From contig NZ_AFNV02000004.1 of the NCBI RefSeq assembly GCF_000215955.2, positions 62,001 to 126,000 on the forward strand: 64,000 nucleotides of DNA, read 5' to 3'. The position numbers and the translations under genes were made by a program. Positions 43,993-59,936 of this stretch are shown in pieces (the stretch's first letter is position 1; each line of letters starts with the position of its first letter). The notes below the pieces were generated by a model. The model saw only the letters and a list, made by a program, of their open reading frames with translations, did no database searches and was not told the DNA's origin. Origin of the DNA: Salinisphaera shabanensis E1L3A (lineage in GTDB: Bacteria > Pseudomonadota > Gammaproteobacteria > Nevskiales > Salinisphaeraceae).

Positions 43993-46130
43993 TGACTAAT
44001 CAAAATCATGGTGGCGGATCGGCCCCGGTCGATCCGCATAGCGACGATCTGTCCACGACATACAGTGCAGGCCGTAACTGGCTGATTACATTGCCCATCG
44101 CGGCATTGCTGCTGTTGGCGATCCTGTTCGGCACGAGTGCGTTCATTCACGGCCAGCTGCTCAGCCTTGGCGGCGATATCTGGCAGAACTACAACATGTT
44201 ACGCGTCGACATGGCCGAGCCGGCCTGCGACCCGGACATGGATATCGACGCCCGCGTAGCCCAGAGCCAGTCCAGCGCTTCAGCCGCACCCGATGAGGAC
44301 AGCCTCTTCGACGCCGGACCGTCGGACCCGAAAGCGCTGCGCCGTTCGCTGGAGGCTCAACGCGGGCAGTGCCGTGAGAGCTACGAACGTTACGAATACA
44401 ACCAGCAGACGACCTCGACGTCGACGCTGCGTGCCTACCGTTCCCTCGAACTGGGCATGGGTCGTATCAACCAGATGGGCCAGGGCGTCCAGGCTTATAT
44501 TCTGGTACTGCTGATCATGCTGGGCGGGTTCATAGCGCTCGCGCTCAATGAACAGATCGCACTGCGCATGCCCAAGTCGCGACTGGACTACCGCGTCAGC
44601 GCTGGCGCCCAGGTGGCCGCCAATCTTGCAATGGCCGTGAGTGGCTTCGTCTGGCTGCGACTGGATTCGGGCGGTGACTTCGGCCTAAACCTCACCTGGC
44701 TCGTCGGCTTTCTGGCGCTCGCCGCCGTCGCCGCCTATCGCTTTTTCAAGGTGCCCGCAACCGCCACGCCCGGCGGCTCGATTCTGCGTGCACAGCTTGC
44801 TATACCGCTATATTGCTGGCTCGCGCTGGTGAGCCTGCTTTATTTTTTCATCAGCGAAGGCTATATCGCTGGGCCGGCCATCCAGCTCACCAAAATGATC
44901 CGTTTCGCGGATCTTTATACGGGCATCGGCCTGTACGTGTGGGTCGGCATGATGCTCAAACACACGCGCATCGCCGAGTTGCTGTTCGGCGTGTTCCGCT
45001 CCTGGGAGATGCGCCCCGAGTTCATCGTGATCATCGTGGTGATCGCCTCGGCCTGGCCCACGGCTTATACCGGCGCATCGGGCATCTTCGTGCTCGCGAT
45101 CGGCGCGGTGATCTATCAGGAGCTGCGTATTGCCGGCACCTATCGACAACTGGCCGTCGCCTCGACTGCGATGTCGGGCAGCATGGGCGTGGTGCTCAAC
45201 CCCTGTCTGATGGTGGTGATCATCGCCGCCCTCAACCGTCAGGTCACGACTGACCAGTTGTATGGCTGGGGCTTATACGTGTTCGCACTTACCGCACTGC
45301 TGTTCACGGCTTTCGTATACATGACGCGCAAGAGTCGCCCCCATCTGGCAACGCCCGACGATGCCCTGCCGGCCACACGCCGCGCCCTCGGGCCTATCAT
45401 TCCGTATGTGGTAATTGGCGTCGTCGTGGTGCTCATCTACGCGAAACTGCTCGGGCAGAGCTTCAACGAGTTCTCGGCGCCGGTCATTCTGCCGCTGATG
45501 ATGATCGCCCTGCTCGGCTACGACCGCTGGCGTGCCCGTCGTCTCTACGACAAGGCGATCTATGCTGCCGACCGCGGTCAGGCCAAGGCGCCCGATCACG
45601 AACCGGCCGGTTTCTGGAATGCGCTGCGTGCCTCAACCGCCGACACCTCGATGCTGCTTGGCGCACTGCTGATGCTGATGGTGCTTTCCATCGTATTCGG
45701 CGGCGTGATGGAGCGCTCCGGCATCATGGAGCTGTTCCCCGAAAACCTCGGCAGTGTCTGGTATGCCACCAGTATTCTGGTGGTGATGCTGGTGATCATC
45801 GGCATGATCATGGAGCCATACGGCGCCATCATTCTGGTCAGCGCCACGCTGGCGCCGTTGGCCTACGACAACGGCATCAATCCGGTGCATTTCTGGATGA
45901 TCGTGCTCGTGGCGTTCGAGCTGGGTTACCTGAGCCCGCCGGTCGCGCTCAACCAATTGTTGACACGTCAGGTGATCGGCGACGCCGAAATTCAGGCAGC
46001 GAAGGCCGAGGTCGCCAACGATCCGAGTTTCTGGCGACGCCACGAAGCAATGCTGCTGCCGATCACGGTGATGGGCTCCTCGCTACTGCTGGTGGCCTTC
46101 ATCCCGCTGATTTTCATGAAGCTGTTCTAG
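43992..46130 (+). CDS. TRAP-type transporter permease, large subunit with fused N-terminal region
   Basis: This 712-residue inner-membrane protein belongs to the DctM/ion-transporter superfamily of TRAP large permeases. An N-terminal helix (about 30-53) is followed by a periplasmic segment of about 110 residues with two cysteines, then helices at about 163-190, 205-222 and 230-250, then the M-type core (for example SAWPTAYTGASGIFVLAIG and MIMEPYGAIILVSATLAP, YLSPPVALNQLL). The first four helices may be a fused DctQ-like small subunit with an inserted periplasmic domain, since no separate small-subunit gene is present. The next gene encodes its likely binding protein. Confidence 0.82.
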   Translation: MTNQNHGGGSAPVDPHSDDLSTTYSAGRNWLITLPIAALLLLAILFGTSAFIHGQLLSLGGDIWQNYNMLRVDMAEPACDPDMDIDARVAQSQSSASAAPDEDSLFDAGPSDPKALRRSLEAQRGQCRESYERYEYNQQTTSTSTLRAYRSLELGMGRINQMGQGVQAYILVLLIMLGGFIALALNEQIALRMPKSRLDYRVSAGAQVAANLAMAVSGFVWLRLDSGGDFGLNLTWLVGFLALAAVAAYRFFKVPATATPGGSILRAQLAIPLYCWLALVSLLYFFISEGYIAGPAIQLTKMIRFADLYTGIGLYVWVGMMLKHTRIAELLFGVFRSWEMRPEFIVIIVVIASAWPTAYTGASGIFVLAIGAVIYQELRIAGTYRQLAVASTAMSGSMGVVLNPCLMVVIIAALNRQVTTDQLYGWGLYVFALTALLFTAFVYMTRKSRPHLATPDDALPATRRALGPIIPYVVIGVVVVLIYAKLLGQSFNEFSAPVILPLMMIALLGYDRWRARRLYDKAIYAADRGQAKAPDHEPAGFWNALRASTADTSMLLGALLMLMVLSIVFGGVMERSGIMELFPENLGSVWYATSILVVMLVIIGMIMEPYGAIILVSATLAPLAYDNGINPVHFWMIVLVAFELGYLSPPVALNQLLTRQVIGDAEIQAAKAEVANDPSFWRRHEAMLLPITVMGSSLLLVAFIPLIFMKLF

Positions 46131-46211
46131 CGTGTGCGCTGTGGCACCGCTCGTTCCTGCAACGAACGTCTTTGAGCCCGTACTAGAAGACAACTCCGGA
46201 GGATATGATCC

Positions 46212-47258
46212 ATGCTGTCCCGAAAAATGACCTCTTATCTGGGTGCAGCCGCGCTCGGCGCCGCGGCCCTGTTCGGCGGCGCACTACAAACTGCCAGCGC
46301 CCAGGAAACCCGTTCGCTTTGCGTCTACGACCCCATTGGCGCCAACGGCTTTATCTACCAATCGTTTCAGGATTACGTCGTACAGGCGCGTGAATGGGGC
46401 ATCAAGCTCAACACGCGTGCCTATACCGACGAAGCCGTGGCCGCGAACGACTTCAAGGCCGGCAAGTGCGATATGGTCGGCGTAACCGGCATCCGGGCGA
46501 TTCACTTCGTGAAATTCGCCGGTAGTCTCGATATGGCCGGGGGGCTGCAGACCTACGATCAGGAAAAGACGGCGATCAAGGTCATGTCCAGCCCCAAGGC
46601 GGCCGATCGTATGACCGAAGACGATTATGAAGTCGTCGGCGTGGTGCCGCTGGGCAAGGCGTTCCTGTTCTCGCGCGACAAGAGCTATCTGGAGAGCCTG
46701 GATACGGTGGCCGGCAAGAAGATCGCGGTCATGTCCTACGACAAGCAGGCATCCACGCTGGCCAATGTGGCCGGCGCCTCGCCGGTGGGTGCGTCGATCG
46801 CGTCCTTCGGGCCGATGTTCAACAACGGCAGCGTGGACCTGGCCTATGCGCCGTCCTTCGCCTATAACGCGCTCGAACTCTACAAAGGCCTCGGTGAACA
46901 GGGCGGCATTGCCGACTTTGTGCTCGGCATGCTGTCGGGCCAGTTGATCATTCATAAGGACAAGTTCGAGGACGGCTTCGGGCAGAAGTCGCGCGAATGG
47001 GTATTCAACAACATGTATGACTCGACCATGCGTCGGGTAAAAAACGCTGACCAGGAGATTCCGGACAAGTACTGGGTACATATCTCCGGCGAACGCGATG
47101 CGAACTATCGTGAGATGTTCCGCAACACGCGCCAGAAACTCTGGGACGACAACTGGTACGACCACGACATGCAGCACATGCTCAAAAAGATCCGTTGCTC
47201 GACCGATGCCGGCCTGGCCGAATGCAGTCAGCCCAGCGAGGGTGGCGCGATCAACTGA
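46212..47258 (+). CDS. DUF6091-type putative solute-binding protein
   Basis: This is a 348-residue periplasmic protein with a signal peptide cleaved after TASA. The mature protein begins with SLCVYDPIGANGF and has a two-lobed binding-protein character (GVTGIRAIHFVKFAGSLDM, KIAVMSYDKQASTLANVAG), in the style of the DUF6091 putative solute-binding family. Cysteines near both ends (SLCVYD, GKCDMV, IRCSTDAGLAEC) suggest disulfides. It follows the permease by 81 bp with a GGAGGA site and is closed by a strong terminator. The ligand cannot be inferred; TRAP systems usually carry organic acids. Confidence 0.8.
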   Translation: MLSRKMTSYLGAAALGAAALFGGALQTASAQETRSLCVYDPIGANGFIYQSFQDYVVQAREWGIKLNTRAYTDEAVAANDFKAGKCDMVGVTGIRAIHFVKFAGSLDMAGGLQTYDQEKTAIKVMSSPKAADRMTEDDYEVVGVVPLGKAFLFSRDKSYLESLDTVAGKKIAVMSYDKQASTLANVAGASPVGASIASFGPMFNNGSVDLAYAPSFAYNALELYKGLGEQGGIADFVLGMLSGQLIIHKDKFEDGFGQKSREWVFNNMYDSTMRRVKNADQEIPDKYWVHISGERDANYREMFRNTRQKLWDDNWYDHDMQHMLKKIRCSTDAGLAECSQPSEGGAIN

Positions 47259-47277
47259 TCCTCGCCTGCGGTTCCAG

Positions 47278-47313
47278 CCCGTCGCATGCCCAGGCATGCG
47301 ACGGGTTTTTTTT
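47278..47313 (+). terminator. Rho-independent terminator of the TRAP-like operon
   Basis: CCCGTCGCATG (47278-47288) and CATGCGACGGG (47295-47305) form a perfect 11-bp stem with a 6-nt loop followed by eight T residues. Confidence 0.95.
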
Positions 47314-47555
47314 GGACTTCATGTGCACAATCCAAAGCGGTTGTAAATTTCCGACAGTCCGACTAATCGCTCTCTAGCGTTCATCTTGTAGCGGGCGTAG
47401 GCTCGATCGAAACGCTGGGGTGAAAGCGTTTAGCCAACACTCAAGACATCTTGCGAGTACAGCTGGCGTAACAATTGCTTTAGTGCACCACGCGGCGAAG
47501 CGTGATGGCACGCCATACGCTCGCCTATCCGAACGGCATACAGGGGAACTCAATA

Positions 47556-49016
47556 ATGGAATTCGTTGAAACGCTGCGCGGCGCGATCTACGCCGTGATG
47601 ACGCCGGTTAGCGACTTTGTCTGGACATACATCCTGTTCTATCTCCTATTCGGCGCCGGCGTGGTGTTCACGGTGGCCACGCGGTTCATGCAGTTTCGAA
47701 TGCTCGGGCACATGATCCGAATCACATTCGATAGCCGCAGCAGCGATCAGGGCGTGAGTTCCTTTCAGGCCTTGGCGACCTCGCTGGCCGCCCGGGTAGG
47801 CACCGGCAATCTGGCTGGTGTGGCCCTGGCCCTCTGGGTCGGCGGCCCGGGCGCCGTGTTCTGGATGTGGATGACCGCGCTTGTCGGTCTCGCGACGACA
47901 TTCATCGAATGCACGCTGGGGCAGGTATACAAGATTCACTACGCCGACGGCGTGTATCGCGGCGGGCCCGCCTATTACATCGAACGTGCCCTCGGCCAGC
48001 GCTGGATGAGCATCATCTTTGCGGTGTTCTTGATCATCGCCTACGGCTTCGCGTTCTCGGGCGCTCAGGCCAATACCATCGCCAAAGGCATGGAAGGCGC
48101 ATTTGATATCCCGACCTGGGCGACCGGTATTACGCTGGTGGTACTCGCCGGTATCGTTGTTTACGGCGGTCTGCGCTCGATTGCCAAGACCGCCGAGAAG
48201 ATCGTGCCGCTCATGGCCATCGCTTATTTTCTGGTCGCAGTCTATATTCTTATCGCGAACTACGAGCAGGTTCCGGGCATGCTCTGGCTGATCGTTCAGA
48301 GTGCCTTCGGCTTCGGTCCGGCCGTAGGTGGCGCCGTGGGCTATACCATCAAGGTTGCCATGGAGAATGGCGTCAAACGCGGATTGTTCTCCAACGAAGC
48401 CGGCATGGGCTCGACCCCGAACGCCGCCGCGACTGCAGAGGTCAATCACCCCGCCGCGCAGGGGCTGGTGCAATCATTCGGCGTGATCGTCGATACGCTG
48501 ATCATCTGCAGCTGTACTGCAGTCGTGATTCTCTTGTCCGGTGTCTACGACCAGATGCTGGCAACCCAGACCGGCGATGATTCGATGCAGGGCATTCAGC
48601 TCACGCAGGACGCCATGGCCGACCACTTGGGCAGCTTCGGCGTCGGCTTCATCGCGATCGCTATCTTCTTCTTCGCCTATACCTCGATTCTGGCGAACTT
48701 TGCCTACACCGAGATCAATCTGGAATATCTGGCGGGCAAACATCACAAAAAAGCCGTCACAATTCTACGACCGCTGATTCTGGCCATGGTCATGATCGGC
48801 TCGATGGCCACACTGACTTTCGTATGGGACTTCGCCGATCTGGCGATGGGCTTGATGGCAACGACCAACCTGATCGCCATTCTGCTGCTGTTACCGATCG
48901 CGTTACGCGTGCTCAAGGACTATGAGCGCCAACGCGCCGAAGGCATCGAAGAGCCGGTATTCCACCGCGCCGTACTGAAGAACCCGGATCAGGTCGAACC
49001 GGGCATCTGGGATTGA
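47556..49016 (+). CDS. Sodium:alanine symporter family protein (AGCS)
   Basis: This 486-residue inner-membrane protein couples sodium influx to uptake of alanine or glycine. It has about eleven membrane segments. The family signature around residues 280-300 is RGLFSNEAGMGSTPNAAATA, and SLAARVGTGNLAGVALAL near the first helices is also characteristic. The ATG at 47556 has an AGGGGA site eight bases upstream, so the frame's extension to 47502 is not used. It stands alone between a terminator and a long inverted repeat. Sodium-coupled uptake fits a marine organism. Confidence 0.93.
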   Translation: MEFVETLRGAIYAVMTPVSDFVWTYILFYLLFGAGVVFTVATRFMQFRMLGHMIRITFDSRSSDQGVSSFQALATSLAARVGTGNLAGVALALWVGGPGAVFWMWMTALVGLATTFIECTLGQVYKIHYADGVYRGGPAYYIERALGQRWMSIIFAVFLIIAYGFAFSGAQANTIAKGMEGAFDIPTWATGITLVVLAGIVVYGGLRSIAKTAEKIVPLMAIAYFLVAVYILIANYEQVPGMLWLIVQSAFGFGPAVGGAVGYTIKVAMENGVKRGLFSNEAGMGSTPNAAATAEVNHPAAQGLVQSFGVIVDTLIICSCTAVVILLSGVYDQMLATQTGDDSMQGIQLTQDAMADHLGSFGVGFIAIAIFFFAYTSILANFAYTEINLEYLAGKHHKKAVTILRPLILAMVMIGSMATLTFVWDFADLAMGLMATTNLIAILLLLPIALRVLKDYERQRAEGIEEPVFHRAVLKNPDQVEPGIWD

Positions 49017-49053
49017 AATTCACGGCGTAGCGCAAGCCGCGCAATGAAAATGG

Positions 49054-49088
49054 TGCGGGCCTGTCGACCAAGAATCGGCAGGCCCGCA
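49054..49088. terminator. Long inverted repeat between convergent genes (probable bidirectional terminator)
   Basis: TGCGGGCCTG (49054-49063) and CAGGCCCGCA (49079-49088) form a perfect 10-bp stem around a 15-nt loop that can pair further (CGA/TCG). It sits between the AGCS gene and the small minus-strand gene. A short T-rich stretch follows only on the minus strand. Confidence 0.6.
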
Positions 49089-49110
49089 TTCAGTCCACGC
49101 AGATGACCCG

Positions 49111-49317
49111 CTAGAGAATCTGCCGGCCCTGCCATTTCAGCGAGGCATCTTTGTCTTTAGCGCGTTCACGGGCACGCGCTATAAGCGAGTCGAAATCCTC
49201 GGGGTTTTCGAGCGTCTCCTCGATCCTGTCAGGATCGTCACCTTGCTGATCGGCGATCGCCTGCAGTATTTCGACGCTGGTATCGGTCTTCTCGCTGAGT
49301 TCGTTCAGGTCCGTCAT
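49111..49317 (-). CDS. Small acidic protein of unknown function
   Basis: A 68-residue hydrophilic product beginning MTDLNELSEKTDTSVEILQA, without signal peptide or membrane segment. It is acidic in the first two thirds and ends with a basic GRQIL tail. The ATG at 49317 has an AAAGAG site about ten bases upstream; a longer frame to 49419 is less likely. It lies downstream of the quorum-sensing synthase gene in the opposite order (its start is 105 bp before the cqsA stop end), so it may be transcribed on the same strand from cqsA read-through. I do not recognise the family. Confidence 0.6.
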   Translation of the reverse strand: MTDLNELSEKTDTSVEILQAIADQQGDDPDRIEETLENPEDFDSLIARARERAKDKDASLKWQGRQIL

Positions 49318-49422
49318 AGTTTCGCACTCTTTCGTCATGTCTCGGTTTCGACAAACACTGGCGCGAATCATTCCCGAGAGAGGCTCCGTACATATACGGG
49401 CCGACACACATGCACACATCGT

Positions 49423-50688
49423 TCACGCCGCGTTAGCGCGTACCAGCGCAGGGCGCTTGCCGCCGCGCCGTGTCGACGGCCAGTTGGCCAGATCGACCTC
49501 ATTGCGAATATCGCGACAGACATCGATCACCCGATTGAGCTGAGAATAACTATGGTTGCAGTTGACAGACAGTCGGATCAACGAACGCTTCGTCGCAGTA
49601 GCGGGCGCACAGAACACAGAGCCGAACACACCACGCGATTCCAGTGCGTCGCGCAATACGATGGTCTGCTCCTCCGGGCCTGACTCGAGCGCGATCATCT
49701 GCGCCTCGCCGCTATCGACGTTATAACCCAGTGCATCAAGATGGCGCCTTAGATAAGCGGCGTTCGCATGCAGCCGCTCGCGCTCGTGATTGGCGCCTTT
49801 GATCAGATCGAGCGTACGCGACAGCGCTGCAATATCGTGGGGCAACAGCGAGGAGCTGAAAATCGCCGGGAACGAGTTGTACTTGATGAACTGACGCAGT
49901 CGCTCGCTGCAGGCAATCAACCCTGCCCGACCGGCAAAGGCCTTGGCCAGACTCGCGGTCACGAAGTGCACTTGCGATTCCAGACCCAGCCCGGCTACCA
50001 GGCCGCGCCCCTGGTCGCCGTGCGTACCCAGGGAATGGGACTCATCGACGATCATCACACAGCCATGCCGATTGGCCACCGCGACGAGCTCCTTCAACGG
50101 CGCGATACTGCCCGTCGTGCTGTAGATCGAGTCCACCACGATGATGCCCGCGCCATTGCGCTTGATCATCGTTTCGAGGTGTGACGGGTCGTTGTGCCGG
50201 AACGGCTTCCATTCCAGTCCAGCACTGCGCACACCTTCCCAGAGAGAGGCATGGGCAAACATGTCGACATAGACTGGCGTACCCGGCGCGCCGATCGATT
50301 GAATCAACCCGACGTTCGCCGCATAACCCGACTGGCAAAGCAGGCTCGACTCCATACGCATCCAACGGGCCATACGCCGTTCCAGGTGTAGTTGCGGGCT
50401 GTCACCATGCAGATAGACGCCGGACATCACGACCGTATTGTCGGACGCACGCAGACAATCGATCTGTGCCTGAATGACTTCGGGATGATTGGCGAGGTCC
50501 AGATAGTCGTTAGTGACCATCAGAATCGAATTCGCATCGGGCTGGCGACCGTGCATGATATGCCCGCCCTTCCACGTCTTCTCGACGCGCTCACGAAAAT
50601 AGTGGTCCACGTGTCGCTTGAGAAACGTGGGTTCCGCGACTGACTTCGGCCGGAGGGAGGAATAGCTGGAAGCTTCAAATTCGTTCAT
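49423..50688 (-). CDS. cqsA: Alpha-hydroxyketone autoinducer synthase (CqsA/LqsA)
   Basis: This 421-residue PLP enzyme belongs to the alpha-oxoamine synthase family and matches CqsA of Vibrio and LqsA of Legionella rather than BioF or KBL. It would condense an acyl-CoA with an amino donor towards an alpha-hydroxyketone signal (CAI-1 or LAI-1 type). CqsA-typical segments: NDYLDLANHPEVI, QSGYAANVGLIQSI, MFAHASLWEGVRSAG, IIVVDSIYSTTGSIAPL, VDESHSLGTHG, SLAKAFAGRAG with the PLP lysine at about residue 249, and GVFGSVFCAPATATKRSLIRLS. The ATG at 50688 has a GAGG site six bases ahead; the frame is open to a TTG at 50742. Confidence 0.93.
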   Translation of the reverse strand: MNEFEASSYSSLRPKSVAEPTFLKRHVDHYFRERVEKTWKGGHIMHGRQPDANSILMVTNDYLDLANHPEVIQAQIDCLRASDNTVVMSGVYLHGDSPQLHLERRMARWMRMESSLLCQSGYAANVGLIQSIGAPGTPVYVDMFAHASLWEGVRSAGLEWKPFRHNDPSHLETMIKRNGAGIIVVDSIYSTTGSIAPLKELVAVANRHGCVMIVDESHSLGTHGDQGRGLVAGLGLESQVHFVTASLAKAFAGRAGLIACSERLRQFIKYNSFPAIFSSSLLPHDIAALSRTLDLIKGANHERERLHANAAYLRRHLDALGYNVDSGEAQMIALESGPEEQTIVLRDALESRGVFGSVFCAPATATKRSLIRLSVNCNHSYSQLNRVIDVCRDIRNEVDLANWPSTRRGGKRPALVRANAA

Positions 50689-50735
50689 GACAACCTCGTA
50701 TTGGTATTGATATGGCGGTTCATTGCTTTTTCGAT

Positions 50736-50752
50736 CTGACAATTTTTGTCAG
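50736..50752. repeat. Inverted repeat near the cqsA start, possible operator
   Basis: CTGACAA (50736-50742) and TTGTCAG (50746-50752) are perfect 7-bp arms around TTT, 48 bp before the cqsA ATG. The size and symmetry fit a dimeric regulator's operator between promoter and start. Confidence 0.55.
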
Positions 50753-50755
50753 TAA

Positions 50756-50834
50756 CGCAATTTTCTATTGAACTCTATTTATATTAAATATCTGCGCCAT
50801 ACAAAATTGCGAGGCGTCAATAGCACGCAATTTT
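50756..50834. repeat. Three copies of the 9-mer CGCAATTTT upstream of cqsA
   Basis: CGCAATTTT occurs at 50756-50764 and 50826-50834, and its complement AAAATTGCG at 50803-50811. The last two form an inverted pair 14 bp apart; the outer two are direct copies 70 bp apart. Three exact 9-mers in 79 bp of an otherwise GC-rich region suggest binding sites for a regulator of the synthase gene. Confidence 0.6.
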
Positions 50835-50877
50835 ATGTTTGCCGAGGCAATATCAGGATGTGTCCGAACGAATGTTT

Positions 50878-50901
50878 GAAAAGCGCACAGCCACGCTTTT
50901 C
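50878..50901. repeat. Stem-loop 1 downstream of lqsR
   Basis: GAAAAGCG (50878-50885) and CGCTTTTC (50894-50901) form a perfect 8-bp stem with an 8-nt loop. It could end or stabilise the lqsS-lqsR transcript, though no T-run follows. Confidence 0.5.
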
Positions 50902-50916
50902 CATGAATACCTCACC

Positions 50917-50940
50917 GGCTATCTATAACAGGCGATAGCC
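50917..50940. repeat. Stem-loop 2 downstream of lqsR
   Basis: GGCTATC (50917-50923) and GATAGCC (50934-50940) form a perfect 7-bp stem with a 10-nt loop, 62 bp after the response-regulator stop codon on the minus strand. It may act with the neighbouring stem-loop. Confidence 0.5.
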
Positions 50941-51002
50941 AAGCACGAATAAGGCCTCGCGTGGGCCAGCGCAACGATGCACAGGCAGGCGTATGCACGC
51001 GA

Positions 51003-52025
51003 CTACATCAGCGAATAACCCATCGTATCTAACCACTCGAGATAACGATTGAAGGTCGACCTTGGCCGCGACATCCCATGTTCACCGGGGTCCGATTCGA
51101 ACACCGCCCAGCGATAATTGCGCGCCCCATTTATGCACTCCGCCACCCGCATATGCGATTTCCAGTGACGGTACGCGTCAGATGTGACGTTCTGCGCACG
51201 ACTCATAAATGCCGGATCCAGCAAGTTTTCGCCAGAACGCAGCAATCGAACGCATTCCGCGGGCGCACCGAGCGCTGCGGCCTGATCGACAAGTGCCTGC
51301 TGCTCGAGTTCGTCGACTATGACCAGCCGGTAGAGCTCGCCGTCCCCATCAATCAACAGGAAACCGGCGGGATTGAACACCATGTAATATTCGACGAATT
51401 CGTATCTCGAACGCAGCGTCCCGAGCAGCTCCGCGATCGCCTCGTCGCCAAGCAACGGCGGCATTTCGATATCGAAGACGTCGATTGCTGTCTTGAATGT
51501 CTCCAGAATGTGCGCGTGCTGGAGTTCGCGAATCGTACGATTGAGGTGTTCGTAGACGTTGTGTTCGCTTTTACGGATGTAACGATCGATTACGCCGTCG
51601 TTGAACCCCTCCACCGCTTCCGTTTCCGTGGCTACGCCGGTAAACAGAATCTTTTTTATATGCGGATCGCGAATCCGTCGGCAGAACTCCAGCCCGTTCA
51701 TGCGCGGCATGGCGTAATCGATCATCGCGATCGATATGCGTGAGAAGCGGTTGGTGAAATGCATCTCGCGCGCAAGCGCGTCAGTATCGAGCGTTACATG
51801 CCGGCGCCCCTCCTGCTCGTCCTCCAAACGGAAGAACCGTTGCCGCGACGGCGACTCGTCGTCGCGATCATTGATATAGGCGAGCGCTTTTTCGGTGGAG
51901 TCGAACAACAGATACGGTAAATCCGCTTCCAACTGAAGGCTCAAATTGCCCAGAAAATCAATGTCGTCGTCGACAAGCACGATTTGAGTGGGATGAAAAT
52001 ACGGCGCTAAACGGGTTTTACTCAT
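51003..52025 (-). CDS. lqsR: LqsR-like response regulator
   Basis: The 340-residue protein starts with a receiver domain: acidic pocket VLVDDDIDF, phospho-accepting Asp at about 103 in MIDYAMPRMNG, Thr in ILFTGVATE and Lys in YIRKSEHN. Between the second strand and the phospho-Asp strand there is an insertion of about 35 charged residues. The C-terminal two thirds has no helix-turn-helix, GGDEF or other output domain I recognise, as in Legionella LqsR. It overlaps the sensor kinase gene by eight bases, so it is very probably that kinase's partner. The LqsR name rests on architecture and on the kinase and synthase neighbours. Confidence 0.8.
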   Translation of the reverse strand: MSKTRLAPYFHPTQIVLVDDDIDFLGNLSLQLEADLPYLLFDSTEKALAYINDRDDESPSRQRFFRLEDEQEGRRHVTLDTDALAREMHFTNRFSRISIAMIDYAMPRMNGLEFCRRIRDPHIKKILFTGVATETEAVEGFNDGVIDRYIRKSEHNVYEHLNRTIRELQHAHILETFKTAIDVFDIEMPPLLGDEAIAELLGTLRSRYEFVEYYMVFNPAGFLLIDGDGELYRLVIVDELEQQALVDQAAALGAPAECVRLLRSGENLLDPAFMSRAQNVTSDAYRHWKSHMRVAECINGARNYRWAVFESDPGEHGMSRPRSTFNRYLEWLDTMGYSLM

Positions 52026-53382
52026 CGCGGCCTACTGCGGGAAACAACATGACGAATTCGGTATAACGTCCAACAACGGAATGGCACCGAATATCGCCGC
52101 CAAAACTGGTCATCACCATACGCGCGAACGCCAGGCCGATGCCGGTGCCCTGGCCGTTTGGCATGGCTGAATAGAATCGCTCGAAAATACGCGGCAGCAC
52201 GTCCGGGTGTATACCGGGGCCGGTGTCGCGAAAATACAGCCGATGCGCACCGCCCGGCTCTCGCTCGGCCCAGATACGGATATCACCCGCATCCGCTCGT
52301 GCAAGAAAATAAAGCGCGTTCTTCAGCAAATTGAAAAGCACGTGCACCATCAGCAGCGGCGATCCATAGAAACGAAAGTCTGCGCTGGCATCCCAGTGCA
52401 CCAGTTCGCGTTCACGCACGGAATGAAACGGATACCGCTCGAGCGCGGTTTGCACGCATGCACCGACCGAACTGACCTCGAAGGACGTCTCGTCGATCGT
52501 GGTACGGCTCGAATTGACGAGCAGCATATCCAGGATGACGTTCGTATATTCCGCCTCAGTGTGGATGCGATCGAGTACCGAATGCATCTCGCGATAGTGG
52601 GCAGTGCGTATGCGTTTGACCGGTAGCCCATGTGCCCGCGCCATATCGAAGCCTTCGAAGATGGCCGGCAAATAATTCTGCAAACCGCGCGCACCGCTGC
52701 GAATCCCGAGCATTGGCGTGCGCAACTCGTGCGCCATCGTACCCACCGCCGAGGTGATCGCGGCCAGCTTCTCTCGCGCTACGAGCTCGGTTTTGTAGTT
52801 AAAAACGCTGCCGCCCAGCAAGGCGAACAGATAGGTCGGTACCAACTGGGCCAATGTGTCGGACTGCTCGCCCATATCGCCCCCGATCGCCACATAGGCC
52901 AGACATGCCGCGGCTGTGCCGATCAGCGCCATCAGCATGATCATCAGCCAGTCGAATACCAGCAGAACGAGAAATAACGAGGCTGCCATCGTCGACAGAG
53001 CCCAGACCGTGACGAAATGGTTCATCAACGCCATGAACACGAAGAAGAACGGCAACTGGTAGATCAGAATCAGGAACCAGTAGACGGTGATGCCGCGTCG
53101 CCACTCATCCGCGCGGAACAGGTAACGCTCAAAGAGCATGGGTAGCGCGACGATCACGCTGAAAGCGCGCAGCCACACACTCTCAAACCCTTGCGGCTGG
53201 AACTCCGTCCAATACACGTAAAAAAGCGGATGACAGACGACCGCAACGATCGCAAACATTCGCATGTTGGCCAGCGAATACGTCGCGCTTTGGTTCAACG
53301 ACGCTTTCAGGCGAACTCGCAAGCGTCGAACAATGCTCGGCACTTGAGCGGAGGACAATGTTATTGGACGCCGTAAAAACAC
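52018..53382 (-). CDS. lqsS: LqsS/CqsS-like sensor histidine kinase
   Basis: The 454-residue inner-membrane kinase has about six N-terminal membrane helices (about 40-205), as in CqsS and LqsS, and its segment FYVYWTEFQPQGFESVWLR resembles the start of the CqsS membrane domain as I recall it. The cytoplasmic part has an H-box MAHELRTPMLG (His about 217) and an ATPase domain with NLLKNALYFL, RDTGPGI and GTGIGLAFARMV. There is no fused receiver domain, unlike CqsS but like LqsS. It is the first gene of the lqsS-lqsR-cqsA set. The start is a GTG inside the palindrome ACGTTAACGT (53381-53390) and is not certain. Confidence 0.85.
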   Translation of the reverse strand: MFLRRPITLSSAQVPSIVRRLRVRLKASLNQSATYSLANMRMFAIVAVVCHPLFYVYWTEFQPQGFESVWLRAFSVIVALPMLFERYLFRADEWRRGITVYWFLILIYQLPFFFVFMALMNHFVTVWALSTMAASLFLVLLVFDWLMIMLMALIGTAAACLAYVAIGGDMGEQSDTLAQLVPTYLFALLGGSVFNYKTELVAREKLAAITSAVGTMAHELRTPMLGIRSGARGLQNYLPAIFEGFDMARAHGLPVKRIRTAHYREMHSVLDRIHTEAEYTNVILDMLLVNSSRTTIDETSFEVSSVGACVQTALERYPFHSVRERELVHWDASADFRFYGSPLLMVHVLFNLLKNALYFLARADAGDIRIWAEREPGGAHRLYFRDTGPGIHPDVLPRIFERFYSAMPNGQGTGIGLAFARMVMTSFGGDIRCHSVVGRYTEFVMLFPAVGRDE

Positions 53383-53644
53383 GTTAACGTCCCGTGTCCC
53401 GGTTTCGATTCGCAGGTCTTCGTTGATATAAATCGGCAGCCATCGCTACATCCTATACGTGGACCTTGAAAATTCGTAGCATCCCGGAACTAAAGGCAAC
53501 GCTACACAGTGGTTTTTCGTACTGTTTGCGCTATGATTCGAGCCTGCAAACGTCGATAGAGGCTATCGCAAAAGTTATGTTTTCCAATCGCCGCTTGCGC
53601 TTTTCGACTGATCGCCACTTTAATCTGCCCGGAACTCACCGGCC
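53383..53644. promoter_or_regulatory. Divergent promoter region between lqsS and the GGDEF-EAL gene
   Basis: This 262-bp spacer must hold the promoters of the quorum-sensing sensor (minus) and the c-di-GMP enzyme (plus). The perfect palindrome ACGTTAACGT overlaps the lqsS start, and a TATAAA occurs at 53427-53432. No -35/-10 pair stands out clearly enough to assign. Confidence 0.4.
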
Positions 53645-56080
53645 ATGAAGCTTGCGCCCCGCCGCCTCATTGCCATCGCGGTTGCACTCAGCGTAGTGCT
53701 TGCAACCCAGATCGTCGTACTGAGCGCGAGCTATCGAGCGGGCGCACTCGCAGGCATGACTACGCTCGGCCTGGCCTGTATCTCGATCCTCAGCACACTC
53801 CTACTTTGCTGGCTTGCGCTTAAGTCCACCCAATCAAATCGCGAGCAGACGCTCGCACCGCTGATCAGCTGGCTTGATCAGTCCGATATCGTCAGTGAAC
53901 GCGCATCACACCGCCCACCGGTCTTGACTGGCGCCAACGCTCGCCTTGTCGACGCCGTCGAAAATCTCGTGGGCCGGGTTCAAAGCTATCGCGACAAGCT
54001 GCTGGTACGCCACCAGCGCGTACAACGACTGTTGCGCAACGTGACCGATGTGCTCTACCACACCGACAACGAAGGTCGAATCAGCTGGATCACCGACACG
54101 GTGACGGACATGCTCGGCTACCGCCCGGGCGAATTGGAAGGCCGCCCCCTGCGGGACGTGCTTGCCAACGCACAAGACGAGCGCGTGCTGCTCGACAGTA
54201 CGCAACTGCATCGGCACCCCACCCGTGTTTATCGCCGCAGCGGCGAGATTGCCTGGCTGCTGATATCGTCTCGCCGTATCGACGACGCAGCCGGCAATGC
54301 GATCGGCAGCGAAGGCGTATGCCGAGACGGTACGCGCCTGATAGAAACGCAGCAGGCGCTCAATGAGGAGAAGGAGCGCGCCCAGGTCACGCTGGCTTCG
54401 ATAGGCGACGCGGTGATCACGACCAATGCCGCCGGGGCAGTCGATTATCTCAACCCGCGCGCGGAACAGATGCTTGGGGTTAATGTCGACGACGCCACGG
54501 GGCGGCATTTCGACAAGCTCTGCAATTTCGTCGATACCGAGCGCAACGTGGCGGTGAACGGGCTGGTTCATAAGTGCCTGGCCAGCGGCGCACTGCAGGA
54601 GCACGACGAAGACCTGACGCTCTACGACCGAGCACCCGAGAAAACCGGCCATACCGTCAAGGTCACCATCTCGCCGATCCGCGATAGCGATCAGGTGATA
54701 ACCGGCACCGTCATCGTGCTGCATGACATCACGCGGCTACAGCAGATATCGCGGGAAATGGCCTACCAGGCCAACCACGATCTGATTACGGATCTACCCA
54801 ACCGGCGTGCGTTCGAACAATCGCTTGATCAAGCGCTGGCCGTGGTCGACGAAAAACACAGTCATGTGTTGTGCTATATCGATCTCGATCAGTTCAAGCT
54901 GGTCAACGATACCTGCGGCCACAACGCCGGCGATGAGATGCTGCGTCAGATTGCCGCGCGATTGGGCAGTTGTATTCGTGCCAACGATACGCTAGCTCGT
55001 CTAGGCGGCGACGAATTCGGGCTGATCATGCGCGATATGTCCCCCAGTGACGCGCAAGCCAAGGCCGAGGAATTGCGCACGAAAATCGATCGCTTCCGTT
55101 TCCGTTGGGACGAAAAGCTCTTCCGACTGGGTGCCAGCGTGGGCGTTGCCTCCATCGACCGCGAGGCAATCGATGCCACCGAACTGTTGCGCCGGGCGGA
55201 TACGGCCTGTTATCTGGCCAAGGAAAAAGGCCGCAATCAAGTCTATGTCTACCACGGCGACAGTGACGAAACGCTCACCCGCCACGGCGACATGCAACGC
55301 ATGCAACAGATCAGCGAGGCGCTGGACAGCAACAGCTTCGAGCTATTTGCCCAGTTCATACAGCCGATCGACCGTCGCGAACACGAGCGTTGCGGGGTCG
55401 AACTGCTATTGCGCGTTCGCGACACGGACGGCTCGATTCTTTCGCCCCAGAACTTCTTGATTACCGCCGAACGCTACAATATCGCTCCGCGTATCGACCG
55501 CTGGGTACTGCACCGCGCGATCCGGCTGATCACCCAGGCCGGCGACGATCATGCGGCCATCGAGCACTACAGCATCAACATCTCCGGCCAATCGATCACC
55601 GACGAACACTTCGTGGACTACGCACGCGGTTTGATCGAGGCATCGAGCGTTGATCCACATCGGCTGGTCTTCGAGATCACCGAAACGGCCGCGGTCACCA
55701 ACACCCACCGCGCTGGCGAACTCATTCGTTCGCTGCGCGCGCTCGGTTGCCGCTTCTCACTGGATGATTTCGGTAGCGGCCTGAGCTCGTTTTCCTATCT
55801 CAAGAACCTGCCGTCGGATTTCATCAAGATCGATGGCAAGCTGGTATCGAACATCCTCACCGATCCGGTCGAGCGTTCCATAGTCGAGGCCATCAACCAG
55901 GTCGGCCAGGCGATGGGCTTGCTGACGGTGGCCGAACACGTGGAAACACGGGCCATGCTGGACGCGCTGCGCGCTATCGGCGTCGACTACGCCCAAGGCT
56001 ACTACGTGGCGCGTCCGATCCCCTTCGAAATGCTGTCGGCGGCACTGGGCACCCGTGAACGCGTCGTGCGCGCGCGCTGA
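53645..56080 (+). CDS. Membrane-anchored PAS-PAS-GGDEF-EAL protein (c-di-GMP turnover)
   Basis: The 811-residue protein would make and/or break the second messenger c-di-GMP. Two N-terminal membrane helices (about 8-60) are followed by two PAS domains (about 130-240 and 250-365), a GGDEF domain with an intact LGGDEF at about 453-458, and an EAL domain. The EAL motif reads ELLLR at about residue 585 rather than EALLR, but the catalytic glutamate is kept, as are NISGQSITDEHF, FEITETAAV, LDDFGSGLSSF and the distal HVET. Both activities are thus possible. It diverges from lqsS. Confidence 0.92.
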   Translation: MKLAPRRLIAIAVALSVVLATQIVVLSASYRAGALAGMTTLGLACISILSTLLLCWLALKSTQSNREQTLAPLISWLDQSDIVSERASHRPPVLTGANARLVDAVENLVGRVQSYRDKLLVRHQRVQRLLRNVTDVLYHTDNEGRISWITDTVTDMLGYRPGELEGRPLRDVLANAQDERVLLDSTQLHRHPTRVYRRSGEIAWLLISSRRIDDAAGNAIGSEGVCRDGTRLIETQQALNEEKERAQVTLASIGDAVITTNAAGAVDYLNPRAEQMLGVNVDDATGRHFDKLCNFVDTERNVAVNGLVHKCLASGALQEHDEDLTLYDRAPEKTGHTVKVTISPIRDSDQVITGTVIVLHDITRLQQISREMAYQANHDLITDLPNRRAFEQSLDQALAVVDEKHSHVLCYIDLDQFKLVNDTCGHNAGDEMLRQIAARLGSCIRANDTLARLGGDEFGLIMRDMSPSDAQAKAEELRTKIDRFRFRWDEKLFRLGASVGVASIDREAIDATELLRRADTACYLAKEKGRNQVYVYHGDSDETLTRHGDMQRMQQISEALDSNSFELFAQFIQPIDRREHERCGVELLLRVRDTDGSILSPQNFLITAERYNIAPRIDRWVLHRAIRLITQAGDDHAAIEHYSINISGQSITDEHFVDYARGLIEASSVDPHRLVFEITETAAVTNTHRAGELIRSLRALGCRFSLDDFGSGLSSFSYLKNLPSDFIKIDGKLVSNILTDPVERSIVEAINQVGQAMGLLTVAEHVETRAMLDALRAIGVDYAQGYYVARPIPFEMLSAALGTRERVVRAR

Positions 56081-56154
56081 TTTGTCGACCGGCGGAATCC
56101 ACGGCCCGCATATCGCGCGTATCATCGAAACAATCTCGATAACGACACGTTCCG

Positions 56155-56706
56155 ATGACAGCTCTCCAGAAGTTCACTGTTCTGCTTGCGCCGTTTTTGC
56201 TGGCCGCTTGCAGCCTGATGCCGCCCGCTGATTTCCCGGTCGAGGAGCAGGTCGATATCGACCGCTATATGGGCAAGTGGTATGTCATTGCCCATATTCC
56301 GCCGAGTGCGACGGAAAATGCCTACAACTCGATCGAGCGCTACGAGCAGACCGAACCCGGCAAGATCGAAACGACATTCACCTACCGCGAAGGCGGTTTC
56401 GACGGCGAACAGAAGACCATGCACCCGGTGGGCAGCGTGCTCGACGACACGAACAACGCCATCTGGGCGATGCGCTTCTACTGGGTACTGCGCATGCAGT
56501 ACGTCATCTCGTATGTCGACGACGCCTACGAAACCACGATCGTGGCGCGCGACAAGCGCGACTATGTATGGATCATGGCGCGCACCCCGCAGATCGACGA
56601 CGCAACCTACGATTCGCTCGTACAAAAAGTCGGCGACTACGGCTACGACACGTCCAAACTGCGCAAGGTGCCGCAACAGCCGCTCGACCAGCGCAACGAC
56701 GGCTAG
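56155..56706 (+). CDS. blc: Bacterial lipocalin (Blc family) lipoprotein
   Basis: This is a 183-residue outer-membrane lipoprotein of the lipocalin family that binds lipids or other hydrophobic ligands. The lipobox is LLAAC. The first barrel strand has the lipocalin GxW motif in RYMGKWYVIAHIP; later segments (NSIERYEQTEPGKIETTFTY, YVWIMARTP) match Blc-type proteins. E. coli Blc is induced by membrane stress and starvation. It precedes an ABC exporter gene by 72 bp, with a GC-rich stem-loop in between. Confidence 0.9.
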   Translation: MTALQKFTVLLAPFLLAACSLMPPADFPVEEQVDIDRYMGKWYVIAHIPPSATENAYNSIERYEQTEPGKIETTFTYREGGFDGEQKTMHPVGSVLDDTNNAIWAMRFYWVLRMQYVISYVDDAYETTIVARDKRDYVWIMARTPQIDDATYDSLVQKVGDYGYDTSKLRKVPQQPLDQRNDG

Positions 56707-56735
56707 TTACAACAACCGCTCGAAGAAAACGAGAC

Positions 56736-56761
56736 CGGGCCGGCTGGGTGACGCCGGCCCG
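56736..56761 (+). terminator. Stem-loop after the lipocalin gene (possible terminator)
   Basis: CGGGCCGGC (56736-56744) and GCCGGCCCG (56753-56761) form a perfect 9-bp stem with an 8-nt loop, 30 bp after the blc stop. It is followed by TTCGCGTCT rather than a T-run, so it may only weaken transcription into the ABC gene. Confidence 0.5.
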
Positions 56762-56778
56762 TTCGCGTCTGGATTGAA

Positions 56779-58557
56779 TTGAAAAACGACTCGACCGAAA
56801 ACGAGGCGCCGCGCGACGAATGGCGCCGCCTGTCCAGGCTGTGGCCATACTTGTGGGAACATCGCGTGCGGGTCGCCGTGGCGCTGGTGTTTCTCATCGG
56901 CGCCAAGGGCGCGACAGTGCTGCTACCGATCGTACTCAAGCATATCGTCGATGCTCTGGATGCCAACGAAAGCGCACGTGTCGCACTGCCTGTGGTGCTA
57001 TTGCTGGCCTACGGCGCGTTGCGGCTTGCCTCGGTATTGTTCGGCCAACTGCGCGACCTGGTATTCGGCCGGGTGACCGAGCGCGCCATGCGGCGGATCG
57101 CGCTGACCGTATTCGAGCATCTGCACGCGCTCGATATGGACTTTCATCTGTCGCGGCGCACCGGCGGGCTATCGCGGGATATCGAACGCGGTATTGGGGG
57201 CATCAGCTTTCTGCTGCGCTTCATGCTGTTCAATATCATTCCCACGCTGCTCGAGATCGCGCTCGTGGCGGGCATTCTGCTGTTCTACTACAGCGCATGG
57301 TTTGCCGTGATCGTGGTAGTCAGCGTGGTCATATATATCGCCGCGACGACGTTACTGACCGAATGGCGCACCCGCCATGTGCGCGAATCCAACCGGCTCG
57401 ACGCACAGGCCAATACGCGTGCGGTCGACAGCCTGCTCAATTACGAAACGGTCAAATACTTCGGCAACGAACGCTATGAGGCCGACCGCTACGACCGCGA
57501 GCTGCGCGGCTGGGAAGCCGCCCTACGGCGTTCGCGGTTGTCGCTGGGTACGCTGAATACGATCCAGGCGACCGTGATCGCGATCGCTATCACGGCCATG
57601 ATGATGCTGGCCGGCTCGCGTGTGGTTTCCGGCAACATGACCATCGGCGACCTGGTCATGGTCAATGCTTACATGATCCAACTGTTCGTGCCGCTGAATT
57701 TTCTGGGCTTCGTCTATCGCGAACTCAAGAAATCACTGGCCGATACGGCCCGGATGTTTCGTCTGCTTGACGTCGAGGCCGCCGTCGACGACGCGCCCCA
57801 TGCCCAAGCGCTTGCCGCTACGCGCCCGGCCGTGCGTTTCGAGAACGTCCAGTTCGGCTATCACACCGAGCGCCAGATTCTGCGCGGTATCGATTTCACC
57901 ATCGCGCCAGGCCGCAAGTTGGCGGTCGTCGGCCAGTCCGGCGCCGGCAAGTCGACGCTCGCACGGCTATTGTTCCGGTTTTACGATGTCGACGCCGGCC
58001 GCATTACCGTGGACGGTCAGGATATTCGCGATCTGACGCTGGCCAGCCTGCGCGACGCCATCGGCGTGGTGCCCCAGGATACGGTGTTGTTCAACGACAC
58101 GATCGAATACAACATCGCCTACGGCCAACCGGACGCCGACCCAGAGGCGGTCGCGCGTGCAGCGCGTATGGCGCATCTGGACGGTCTGCTTGCACGGCTG
58201 CCGGACGGCATGAACACGCTCGTGGGCGAGCGCGGCCTCAAACTCTCCGGCGGTGAGAAACAGCGGATCGCCATCGCGCGTGCCATTCTCAAGAATCCGG
58301 CGATCCTGATTTTCGACGAGGCGACGTCGTCGCTCGACAGCCACGCCGAACAGGCCATCACATCCGCGCTGGCCGAACTGGCGGCCAACCACACCACACT
58401 GGTGATCGCCCATCGGCTGTCCACGGTCGTGGATGCCGACGAAATCGTGGTCATGGACGACGGCCGCATCATCGAACGCGGCCGTCATGCCGATCTGCTC
58501 GCCGCAGACGGCCACTACGCTGCAATGTGGCGGCTACAGCAACGCGAATCCGCCTAG
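56779..58557 (+). CDS. ABC exporter, ATM1-like, fused permease-ATPase
   Basis: This 592-residue half-transporter has six membrane helices (about 30-320) and a C-terminal nucleotide-binding domain: Walker A GQSGAGKST, Q-loop VPQDTVLF, signature LSGGEKQR, Walker B ILIFDEATSSLDS and H-loop IAHRLST. The helix-domain sequence (ALRLASVLFGQLRDLVFGRVTERAMRR, VDSLLNYETVKYFGNE) is typical of the ATM1/HMT1 branch, which exports glutathione-linked compounds or metals. The start appears to be a TTG at 56779, as no ATG or GTG is available near the first conserved residues. Confidence 0.9.
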   Translation: MKNDSTENEAPRDEWRRLSRLWPYLWEHRVRVAVALVFLIGAKGATVLLPIVLKHIVDALDANESARVALPVVLLLAYGALRLASVLFGQLRDLVFGRVTERAMRRIALTVFEHLHALDMDFHLSRRTGGLSRDIERGIGGISFLLRFMLFNIIPTLLEIALVAGILLFYYSAWFAVIVVVSVVIYIAATTLLTEWRTRHVRESNRLDAQANTRAVDSLLNYETVKYFGNERYEADRYDRELRGWEAALRRSRLSLGTLNTIQATVIAIAITAMMMLAGSRVVSGNMTIGDLVMVNAYMIQLFVPLNFLGFVYRELKKSLADTARMFRLLDVEAAVDDAPHAQALAATRPAVRFENVQFGYHTERQILRGIDFTIAPGRKLAVVGQSGAGKSTLARLLFRFYDVDAGRITVDGQDIRDLTLASLRDAIGVVPQDTVLFNDTIEYNIAYGQPDADPEAVARAARMAHLDGLLARLPDGMNTLVGERGLKLSGGEKQRIAIARAILKNPAILIFDEATSSLDSHAEQAITSALAELAANHTTLVIAHRLSTVVDADEIVVMDDGRIIERGRHADLLAADGHYAAMWRLQQRESA

Positions 58558-58577
58558 CACCTGCTGCCGAAAACCGA

Positions 58578-59762
58578 TCAATCCGATGCGCGACGACGAA
58601 TGATCAGACCCGCCAGTGCTGCTGCGGCCAGTACGGCGACCGCTATCGAGAAACCGATACCGGCCGCTCGCAGGCCCAACATTTGGGCAGCGAGGCCGAT
58701 ACCCACCACGGGAATCGAGATCGCGATATAGAGCACTACGAAAAACGTTGATGCGACTTCGCCGCGGCGCGCGGGCGGACTCGCGGCAGTCACAGCGCCC
58801 ATGCCGGCACGAAACGCCACGCCCTGGCCGATACCGGCCACGATCGCACCCGTGACCAGCACCATCAGCGACGACATGACGATAGCCATCGCAACCAGTG
58901 CGATGCCGATAATCAAGCCGATACAACCCAGCGGCAGGCGCCACTTTTGCGGCAACCGGGCCTGGCCGATCTGGCCCACCGTCGACGCCACGAACAGCAG
59001 GAATACCACCGCGCCGGTCAGGGCGTGGTTGTCATAGTTCAGGATCTTACCCATGAAAGCCGGAGCGATGGCGGTGAACAAACCGAGCACCGAAAATCCG
59101 GCGAAGCCGGCAATCGCAGCCGGTATGAAAACACCGCGCACTTCGGGCGGTACCTGTAAGGACTGGATTCGCAGGCGTGGCCGTGCCGGGCGTTCGGCCG
59201 TTTCCGGCACCAGCGCGATGGCCATACCGGCGATCGCGATCAGCACGAGATCGGCCACGAAGCAAAGCGTGAGCGGCGCGGGCAGATACTGCGACAACAC
59301 ACCGGCGAACAACGGCCCTAGCCCCAGGCCGCCCATATTCGCCGCCGTCGCGATCAGAGTAGCGCTGCCCGCCCAAGCCGCCGGCGCCAGCTCGACAACG
59401 GCCACGGTGGCCGTGCCGGTAAATATGCCCGCCGAAATGCCGGATAGCACACGCCCGAGCAACAGCGGCGCCAGACCACCGCCCCAGAGAAATGCACAGG
59501 CGCTCGCTGCCGAAAAAATGAGGCCAAGGGCTAGCATGGGCCGACGTCCGAGCTGATCCGACCAGCTGCCCGTGACAATCAGCGCGCTGATCACGCCCAC
59601 CGCATAAGCCGCGAAAATCACGGTGATGATCAGCTGCGAAAAACCCAGTTCTGCCTGATAAATCGGATAGAGCGGGGTCGGCAGCGTCGTGCCCATCATG
59701 GTGACGACGAACGTCATGGCCGCACCAAAAAAGAGCACTGCGGAGCGATTCGACTCGGTCAT
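58578..59762 (-). CDS. MFS transporter, probably drug or sugar efflux
   Basis: This 394-residue inner-membrane protein of the major facilitator superfamily has about twelve helices. The loop between helices 2 and 3 reads GSWSDQLGRRPML, the MFS A-motif. Basic loops and a short charged C-terminus (RRRASD) fit the usual topology. It most resembles efflux permeases of the YcaD/AraJ type, but the substrate is unknown. It is convergent with the ABC exporter gene 20 bp away. Confidence 0.85.
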   Translation of the reverse strand: MTESNRSAVLFFGAAMTFVVTMMGTTLPTPLYPIYQAELGFSQLIITVIFAAYAVGVISALIVTGSWSDQLGRRPMLALGLIFSAASACAFLWGGGLAPLLLGRVLSGISAGIFTGTATVAVVELAPAAWAGSATLIATAANMGGLGLGPLFAGVLSQYLPAPLTLCFVADLVLIAIAGMAIALVPETAERPARPRLRIQSLQVPPEVRGVFIPAAIAGFAGFSVLGLFTAIAPAFMGKILNYDNHALTGAVVFLLFVASTVGQIGQARLPQKWRLPLGCIGLIIGIALVAMAIVMSSLMVLVTGAIVAGIGQGVAFRAGMGAVTAASPPARRGEVASTFFVVLYIAISIPVVGIGLAAQMLGLRAAGIGFSIAVAVLAAAALAGLIIRRRASD

Positions 59763-59885
59763 TTAATCATCCTGTTCAATAAACCGCCAGCACGTGCCCC
59801 GTCGGCACGACGCCACCCGTAAACCAGGCGCGGAGGCTAACAGCCTTCATCATGCAACGACATCAATCGCCGACGAGCGCGCACG

Positions 59886-59911
59886 AAAAAGGCCCGGCAA
59901 TGCCGGGCCTT
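59886..59911 (-). terminator. Rho-independent terminator of the ProVWX operon
   Basis: On the minus strand AAGGCCCGGC and GCCGGGCCTT pair around ATT and run into T residues (A-run at 59886-59890 on the plus strand). It lies 26 bp after the proX stop. Confidence 0.9.
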
Positions 59912-59936
59912 CCTGAGCGATCGATTTACCGCAAGA

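What the first reader, a model, noticed from the sequence alone, without database searches (positions are those of the whole stretch)
49423..53382. Complete Cqs/Lqs-type alpha-hydroxyketone quorum-sensing system outside Vibrio and Legionella
Seen: a six-helix histidine kinase without receiver domain (lqsS-like), an overlapping response regulator with a large insertion and no DNA-binding domain (lqsR-like), and a CqsA-type PLP synthase, all on one strand in the order S-R-A. Known: CqsA/CqsS in Vibrio make and sense CAI-1; LqsA/LqsS/LqsR do so with LAI-1 in Legionella. Inference: this organism signals with an alpha-hydroxyketone through a Legionella-like circuit with a different gene order. The acyl chain and amino donor are unknown.
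Basis: partly seen in the sequence, partly recalled or inferred. Interest (0 to 1): 0.85.

Follow-up and report, generated by a model that had tools for sequence, protein, structure and literature searches.

The report
Known-type quorum-sensing genes in Salinisphaera
A salt-loving bacterium carries a complete set of genes of the known Cqs/Lqs type for making and sensing a fatty ketone signal; the set is real but of a widespread, already described kind, with one new hint that it is paired with a second-messenger enzyme.

Summary
On the minus strand of a Salinisphaera contig lie, in order, a membrane histidine kinase without receiver (S, 52018-53382), a response regulator overlapping it by 8 bp (R, 51003-52025) and a CqsA/LqsA-type synthase (A, 49423-50688 from the likely ATG). 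A scores 585 bits against NCBIfam's alpha-hydroxyketone autoinducer synthase model (cut-off 428) and separates from the host's two paralogues in a rooted tree. R matches Legionella LqsR over its whole length by sequence and by predicted fold (Z 30.3). The interpretation (an Lqs-like circuit) is well supported; its claim of novelty is not. Such clusters are in print for many proteobacteria, and a 2013 tree legend already lists the synthase of Salinisphaera shabanensis. S>R>A on one strand is found in 11 of 11 Salinisphaera loci (71 of 74 complete loci elsewhere are S>R> <A). What may be new: a divergent PAS-GGDEF-EAL gene beside S in these 11 loci, and GGDEF genes next to the cluster in some other lineages, suggesting a link to c-di-GMP. 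No signal molecule was shown; chain length and amino donor remain unknown, and a residue that sets tail-length preference in Vibrio CqsS varies (F, I, C) within the genus.

The parts
52018..53382 (-). S: membrane histidine kinase of the CqsS/LqsS type, no receiver domain; His218 phospho-acceptor box, W127/S130 and F194 at the places of V. cholerae CqsS W104/S107 and C170
51003..52025 (-). R: LqsR-family response regulator; receiver (D19-21, D103, T129, K152) with an insertion of roughly 40-50 residues before the phospho-acceptor strand (size by comparison with an ordinary receiver, recalled), then the LqsR C-terminal domain
49423..50688 (-). A: CqsA/LqsA-type alpha-hydroxyketone autoinducer synthase, from the ATG shared by 5 of 7 aligned Salinisphaera loci (ORF listed from TTG at 50742)
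53645..56080 (+). divergent PAS-GGDEF-EAL protein, beside S in the 11 Salinisphaera loci read; proposed partner, not shown
53383..53644 (.). intergenic region between the two divergent genes, partly conserved by eye in the four closest of 7 loci; presumed promoters
50737..50751 (.). inverted repeat TGACA-N5-TGTCA in the AT-rich stretch before A; possible operator

Best explanation
This is the Salinisphaera version of the Lqs-type alpha-hydroxyketone quorum-sensing system. A, a PLP enzyme, joins a medium-chain acyl-CoA to a small amino acid or SAM and so starts a CAI-1/LAI-1-like ketone; the signal leaves the cell and builds up with density. S, with its membrane helices, binds the signal, which changes its autophosphorylation on His218. 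S and R (overlapping genes) exchange phosphate at Asp103 of R. R then acts through its LqsR-type C-terminal domain, which is not a known DNA-binding domain. Shown here: presence, family membership, active-site residues, conserved gene order. Inferred from the characterised relatives: chemistry, ligand binding, direction of phosphate flow. Proposed only: that one output runs through the divergent PAS-GGDEF-EAL protein and c-di-GMP.
For: A: 585 bits against NF005526; next best BioF at 244 bits, under that model's cut-off; V. cholerae CqsA is the best PDB match at 371 bits, serine palmitoyltransferase next at 165; in a rooted tree of 52 rows the 50 CqsA-type rows split from the host's two paralogues (99% SH-aLRT), and the 11 Salinisphaera rows are one clade (100%) (48 of the 106 A proteins at hand were used, plus Vibrio campbellii and Cupriavidus). 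R: LqsR (6sy9) by profile, E 2.9e-115, by single sequence, E 3e-45, and by predicted fold, Z 30.3, rmsd 3.2, 306 residues; C-terminal part alone Z 10.1, rmsd 3.4, 145 residues. S: invariant H218, N351, N355, D386, G390, G414, G416, W127, S130 across 30 rows, five of them receiver-bearing kinases of the Vibrio type. A match is present in 11 of 14 Salinisphaera genomes (own included, E 1e-100 or better), all 11 S>R>A with overlapping S and R.
Against: No product, ligand or phosphotransfer was tested. Three of 14 genus members show no match (81%, 87% and 99% complete), so it is not universal in the genus. S is only 26-28% identical to the five aligned receiver-bearing kinases. L. pneumophila LqsA and LqsS were not compared; only LqsR was at hand, through the PDB. 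The tree was a quick one with very long outgroup branches.
Confidence: 0.9

Rival explanations
1. A sub-case rather than a true rival: the system signals, but with a related molecule, for example an amino-enone such as Ea-C8-CAI-1 (known from V. harveyi) as the active signal, with different tails in different Salinisphaera species.
For: The place of V. cholerae CqsS C170 (F in V. harveyi), which sets tail-length preference (PMC3285556, summary and passages), is F in 9, I in 1 and C in 1 of the 11 Salinisphaera loci. A Phe there goes with a shorter tail in Vibrio.
Against: S is under 30% identical to Vibrio-type kinases, so a single-residue rule may not carry over.
Confidence: 0.4
2. A is an ordinary alpha-oxoamine synthase (BioF, KBL or serine palmitoyltransferase) and the neighbours are an unrelated two-component system.
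For: Same fold superfamily; BioF model 244 bits, serine palmitoyltransferase model 227 bits.
Against: Those scores are far below the models' cut-offs (426 and 500 bits), while the autoinducer synthase model is passed; the genome has two other members of the superfamily, which fall outside the A clade; A lies with S and R in 85 loci with all three genes (11 + 7 + 67, many of them close kin).
Confidence: 0.02
3. R is an LqsR-family regulator serving another quorum system, as PhcX does in Ralstonia, and A-S is a separate circuit.
For: PhcX is an LqsR orthologue next to the phc genes (PMC10653808, passages); an LqsR-like gene stands on a Massilia plasmid without A or S among the annotated genes of the stretch read.
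Against: R overlaps S in the 11 Salinisphaera loci and is the next gene of the cluster after S in the 74 other complete loci.
Confidence: 0.05

Closest known systems
Lqs system of Legionella pneumophila (LqsA/LqsS/LqsR)
   Same: Separate kinase and regulator; R is LqsR over its whole length.
   Different: Legionella order lqsA-lqsR-hdeD-lqsS with own promoters, plus an orphan lqsT (PMC5289986, passages); here S>R>A, S and R overlap with nothing between them, and no second full-length S-like kinase was found.
Jqs cluster of Janthinobacterium (jqsA/jqsS/jqsR)
   Same: Three-gene environmental version of the same system (PMC3566124, section 22).
   Different: Different lineage; its gene orientation was not compared here.
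Cqs system of Vibrio (CqsA/CqsS)
   Same: Synthase family; kinase with the same W-x-x-S site.
   Different: The Vibrio-type S proteins are 681-700 aa and carry a receiver in the five rows aligned; no R gene was found beside them.
Lqs-type cluster of Salinisphaera shabanensis E1L3A (synthase in print)
   Same: Same genus, same synthase family (figure legend in PMC3566124).
   Different: The legend that I read gives only the synthase accession; that sequence was not compared here.

Membership tests
CqsA/LqsA autoinducer synthase | Scores over the curated model for the family, and under the cut-offs of BioF, KBL and SPT models | tested here: met
   585 bits, cut-off 428; the others under their cut-offs
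CqsA/LqsA autoinducer synthase | Groups with CqsA-type enzymes, not BioF-like ones, in a rooted tree | tested here: met
   outgroup = the two paralogues of the same genome (BioF and SPT-like by recall), on long branches
CqsA/LqsA autoinducer synthase | Makes an alpha-hydroxyketone or its amino precursor | not testable with these tools
   needs expression and LC-MS
CqsS/LqsS sensor kinase | Conserved signal-site residues followed by HisKA/HATPase | tested here: met
   W127 and S130 invariant in 30 rows, His218, HATPase 76 bits
CqsS/LqsS sensor kinase | Six membrane helices | tested here: inconclusive
   only a hydropathy plot, in which neighbouring segments run together
CqsS/LqsS sensor kinase | Binds an alpha-hydroxyketone | not testable with these tools
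   needs a ligand assay
LqsR response regulator | Receiver with phospho-acceptor Asp and LqsR C-terminal domain | tested here: met
   6sy9 over the full length: E 2.9e-115, Z 30.3; C-terminal part alone Z 10.1; D103 aligned with the DYAM motif of LqsR
GGDEF-like output domain (published view of LqsR) | Fold match of the C-terminal domain to diguanylate cyclase domains | tested here: inconclusive
   Foldseek E<=0.001 only for LqsR itself; the further rows shown are mostly kinase lobes at Z 5.3 and below

The most novel reading that the evidence does not exclude
In Salinisphaera the alpha-hydroxyketone circuit is a four-gene unit wired to c-di-GMP: the divergent PAS-GGDEF-EAL protein is the output partner of the LqsR-type regulator, and placing a GGDEF gene next to an Lqs cluster has happened several times (Salinisphaera, Alcanivoracaceae, part of Paraburkholderia, Nitrococcus).
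Probability: 0.3. Interest if true: 0.5.

Novelty: new member of a known kind. Interest (0 to 1): 0.27.

Why it matters
Salinisphaera would be an environmental, salt-loving host in which to study Lqs signalling away from infection. What LqsR does after phosphorylation is an open question; a conserved c-di-GMP enzyme beside the cluster would make one answer directly testable. The tail-length residue that varies inside one genus offers a natural set for testing signal specificity.

Tried and rejected
GGDEF neighbours as chance: of 63 non-Salinisphaera loci with enough flank on both sides (of 74 named ones), 19 have a GGDEF ORF within 1 kb of the cluster against 0.75 expected from GGDEF density; by genus or like group, 4 of 25 against 0.33; within 3 kb, 22 of 60 loci and 7 of 24 groups against 2.16 and 0.95. 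Densities come from 25 genomes, picked after I had seen (searched 27; the two Salinisphaera were not used), and the median for the rest. Weaknesses: the limits were chosen after seeing the data, the two Alcanivoracaceae groups are close kin, 12 of the 19 loci are one genus, 15 phylum loci (L039-L053) show no GGDEF within their flanks and were not in the count, and plain density is too kind a control: in the own genome two other two-component loci, of about 25 by my hand count, also lie within 2 kb of an unfused GGDEF domain. So I rate it a hint. Gap between the GGDEF gene and A in two Paraburkholderia and two Nitrococcus loci: no clear gene seen by eye.

The inverted repeat before A: exact form once in the window (expected 0.04). 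In the 146 loci then held, 12 match, all copies of five places, each at or just before the start of A. But with 10 or more of 12 positions, A leaders reach 6 of 99, S leaders 2 of 92 and control stretches 16 of 1000, some of which hold the same sites, and the spacing is shorter by two in two Salinisphaera loci. As an RNA hairpin the leader is no more stable than shuffles (z -0.57). Sigma-70 scan of 49050-53800: no hit. Rfam, 44000-60000: none. A stricter pattern found one palindromic site elsewhere in the genome, not followed. LuxI family: no match, but no control genome rang either, so absence is not shown.

Papers: none in the held library has both 'Salinisphaera' and 'autoinducer'; none of the 20 listed of 205 holds Salinisphaera. 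The Hornung 2013 legend abbreviates the genus, so such searches miss it. For a link of these clusters to diguanylate cyclases, one search listed 12 of 53 papers, three with all terms, which I did not read; so I do not claim that the GGDEF neighbour is unpublished.

C-terminal domain of R as GGDEF: not recovered among the rows shown.
Full report
What is there. The window is part of a 3.76-Mb assembly (G000:C38:62001-126000). The nearest relatives of its synthase that bear a genus name are Salinisphaera (five rows, 65-92% identity), and several unnamed genus members have contigs of exactly the lengths of these named records. One close row is labelled Endozoicomonas sp. G2_2 but has the contig length and place of genus member G008, so that label is doubtful. 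On the minus strand three genes follow each other: S (52018-53382), R (51003-52025) and A (ORF 49423-50742; likely ATG at 50688). Divergent from S runs a PAS-GGDEF-EAL gene, 53645-56080.

Synthase. NCBIfam's alpha-hydroxyketone-type autoinducer synthase model gives 585 bits (cut-off 428); BioF gives 244 (cut-off 426), serine palmitoyltransferase 227 (cut-off 500). In the PDB the best match is V. cholerae CqsA, 371 bits over residues 37-415. A tree of 52 rows (48 of the 106 A proteins at hand, two plasmid records and two outgroup rows), rooted on the two paralogues of the same genome, puts A with the 49 other CqsA-type enzymes (branch support 99%) and makes the 11 Salinisphaera rows one clade (100%). 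The outgroup branches are long and the method was the quick one, so only the main split should be trusted. L. pneumophila LqsA was not among the named rows.

Regulator. A profile of 43 R proteins from the window and named loci finds Legionella LqsR (PDB 6sy9) at E 2.9e-115 over the full length; the window protein alone finds it at E 3e-45. The predicted structure (mean pLDDT 88.8) matches 6sy9 with Z 30.3 over 306 residues; the other 49 rows shown align at most 135 residues. The C-terminal domain folded alone (pLDDT 90.7) matches LqsR at Z 10.1 and nothing else at Z over 5.3. A published reading sees a degenerate GGDEF-like fold there, without cyclase activity found (PMC10653808, passages, citing the LqsR structure paper, which I did not read). 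My fold search did not bring up GGDEF domains among the rows shown; that does not exclude it.

Kinase. S has the HATPase domain, His218, and, in 30 aligned relatives, invariant W127 and S130. In the V. campbellii kinase (read from L140) these are W100 and S103, and its His is 190. The offset of four to the V. cholerae residues W104 and S107 (named in PMC3376566, passage) puts C170 at 24 residues before the His, where V. campbellii has F, as the paper says of V. harveyi (PMC3285556; its number there is 175, so the published start must differ). At that place the window has F194; the 11 Salinisphaera loci have F nine times, I once, C once. The rule comes from Vibrio and may not hold here.

Distribution. 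The synthase family is in 11 of 14 genus members (own included) and in none of the 86 other relatives searched, at E 1e-100; in a draw of 398 genomes of the phylum, own included, 16 have it. All 11 Salinisphaera loci are S>R>A on one strand. Of 89 loci outside the genus, 74 have all three genes: 71 are S>R> <A, one (G250) is S>R>A, one A>S>R (Variovorax), one A<S>R>. So the order of the window is unusual but not unique. Of the other 15, eight have only A and S, and seven (short contigs among them) A alone or A and R. Six of the eight S proteins are 681-700 aa; the five of these that were aligned carry a receiver.

What is in print. The system is known: L. pneumophila lqsA-lqsR-hdeD-lqsS (PMC5289986, passages); clusters with or without lqsR in Nitrococcus, Burkholderia, Polaromonas and others (PMC3376566, passages); jqsA/S/R in Janthinobacterium, and in the same figure legend S. 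shabanensis E1L3A (PMC3566124, section 22; genus checked); a broad survey of lqs and phc clusters (PMC10653808, passages). I therefore file it as a new member of a known kind, in a genus already on record.

What may be new. The GGDEF-EAL gene is beside S in all 11 Salinisphaera loci (cut by a contig end in one), also in the four loci (L029, L030, L033, L035) where no relative of the sodium:alanine symporter gene of the A side was found within about 6 kb. Outside the genus, GGDEF ORFs of 384-422 aa lie 242-966 bp from A in the six Alcanivoracaceae loci with enough flank, in 12 of 27 Paraburkholderia and 1 of 2 Nitrococcus loci; most other groups show none. In L. pneumophila quorum sensing is linked to c-di-GMP through LvbR and Hnox1 (PMC10692735, passages). 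The statistics and their weakness are under Tried and rejected. I give the direct link a probability of 0.3.

Noticed in passing
   Followed up: partly
window 51003-51476: The C-terminal domain of R has weak fold similarity to N-terminal lobes of aminoglycoside-phosphotransferase-like and protein kinases (Z 5.3 and below) rather than to GGDEF domains, in the rows returned.
   Followed up: partly
window 49111-49419: Small ORF just after A, no Pfam match; a similar stretch lies after A in 6 of the 11 Salinisphaera loci, the window's own included.
   Followed up: no
L099: Nitrococcus MAG with the synthase and an upstream GGDEF gene, but no S or R match in the 3.8 kb downstream.
   Followed up: no
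L142: LqsR-like regulator on a Massilia violaceinigra plasmid next to a DUF4902 gene, without an annotated synthase or kinase in the stretch read.
   Followed up: no
   Followed up: no
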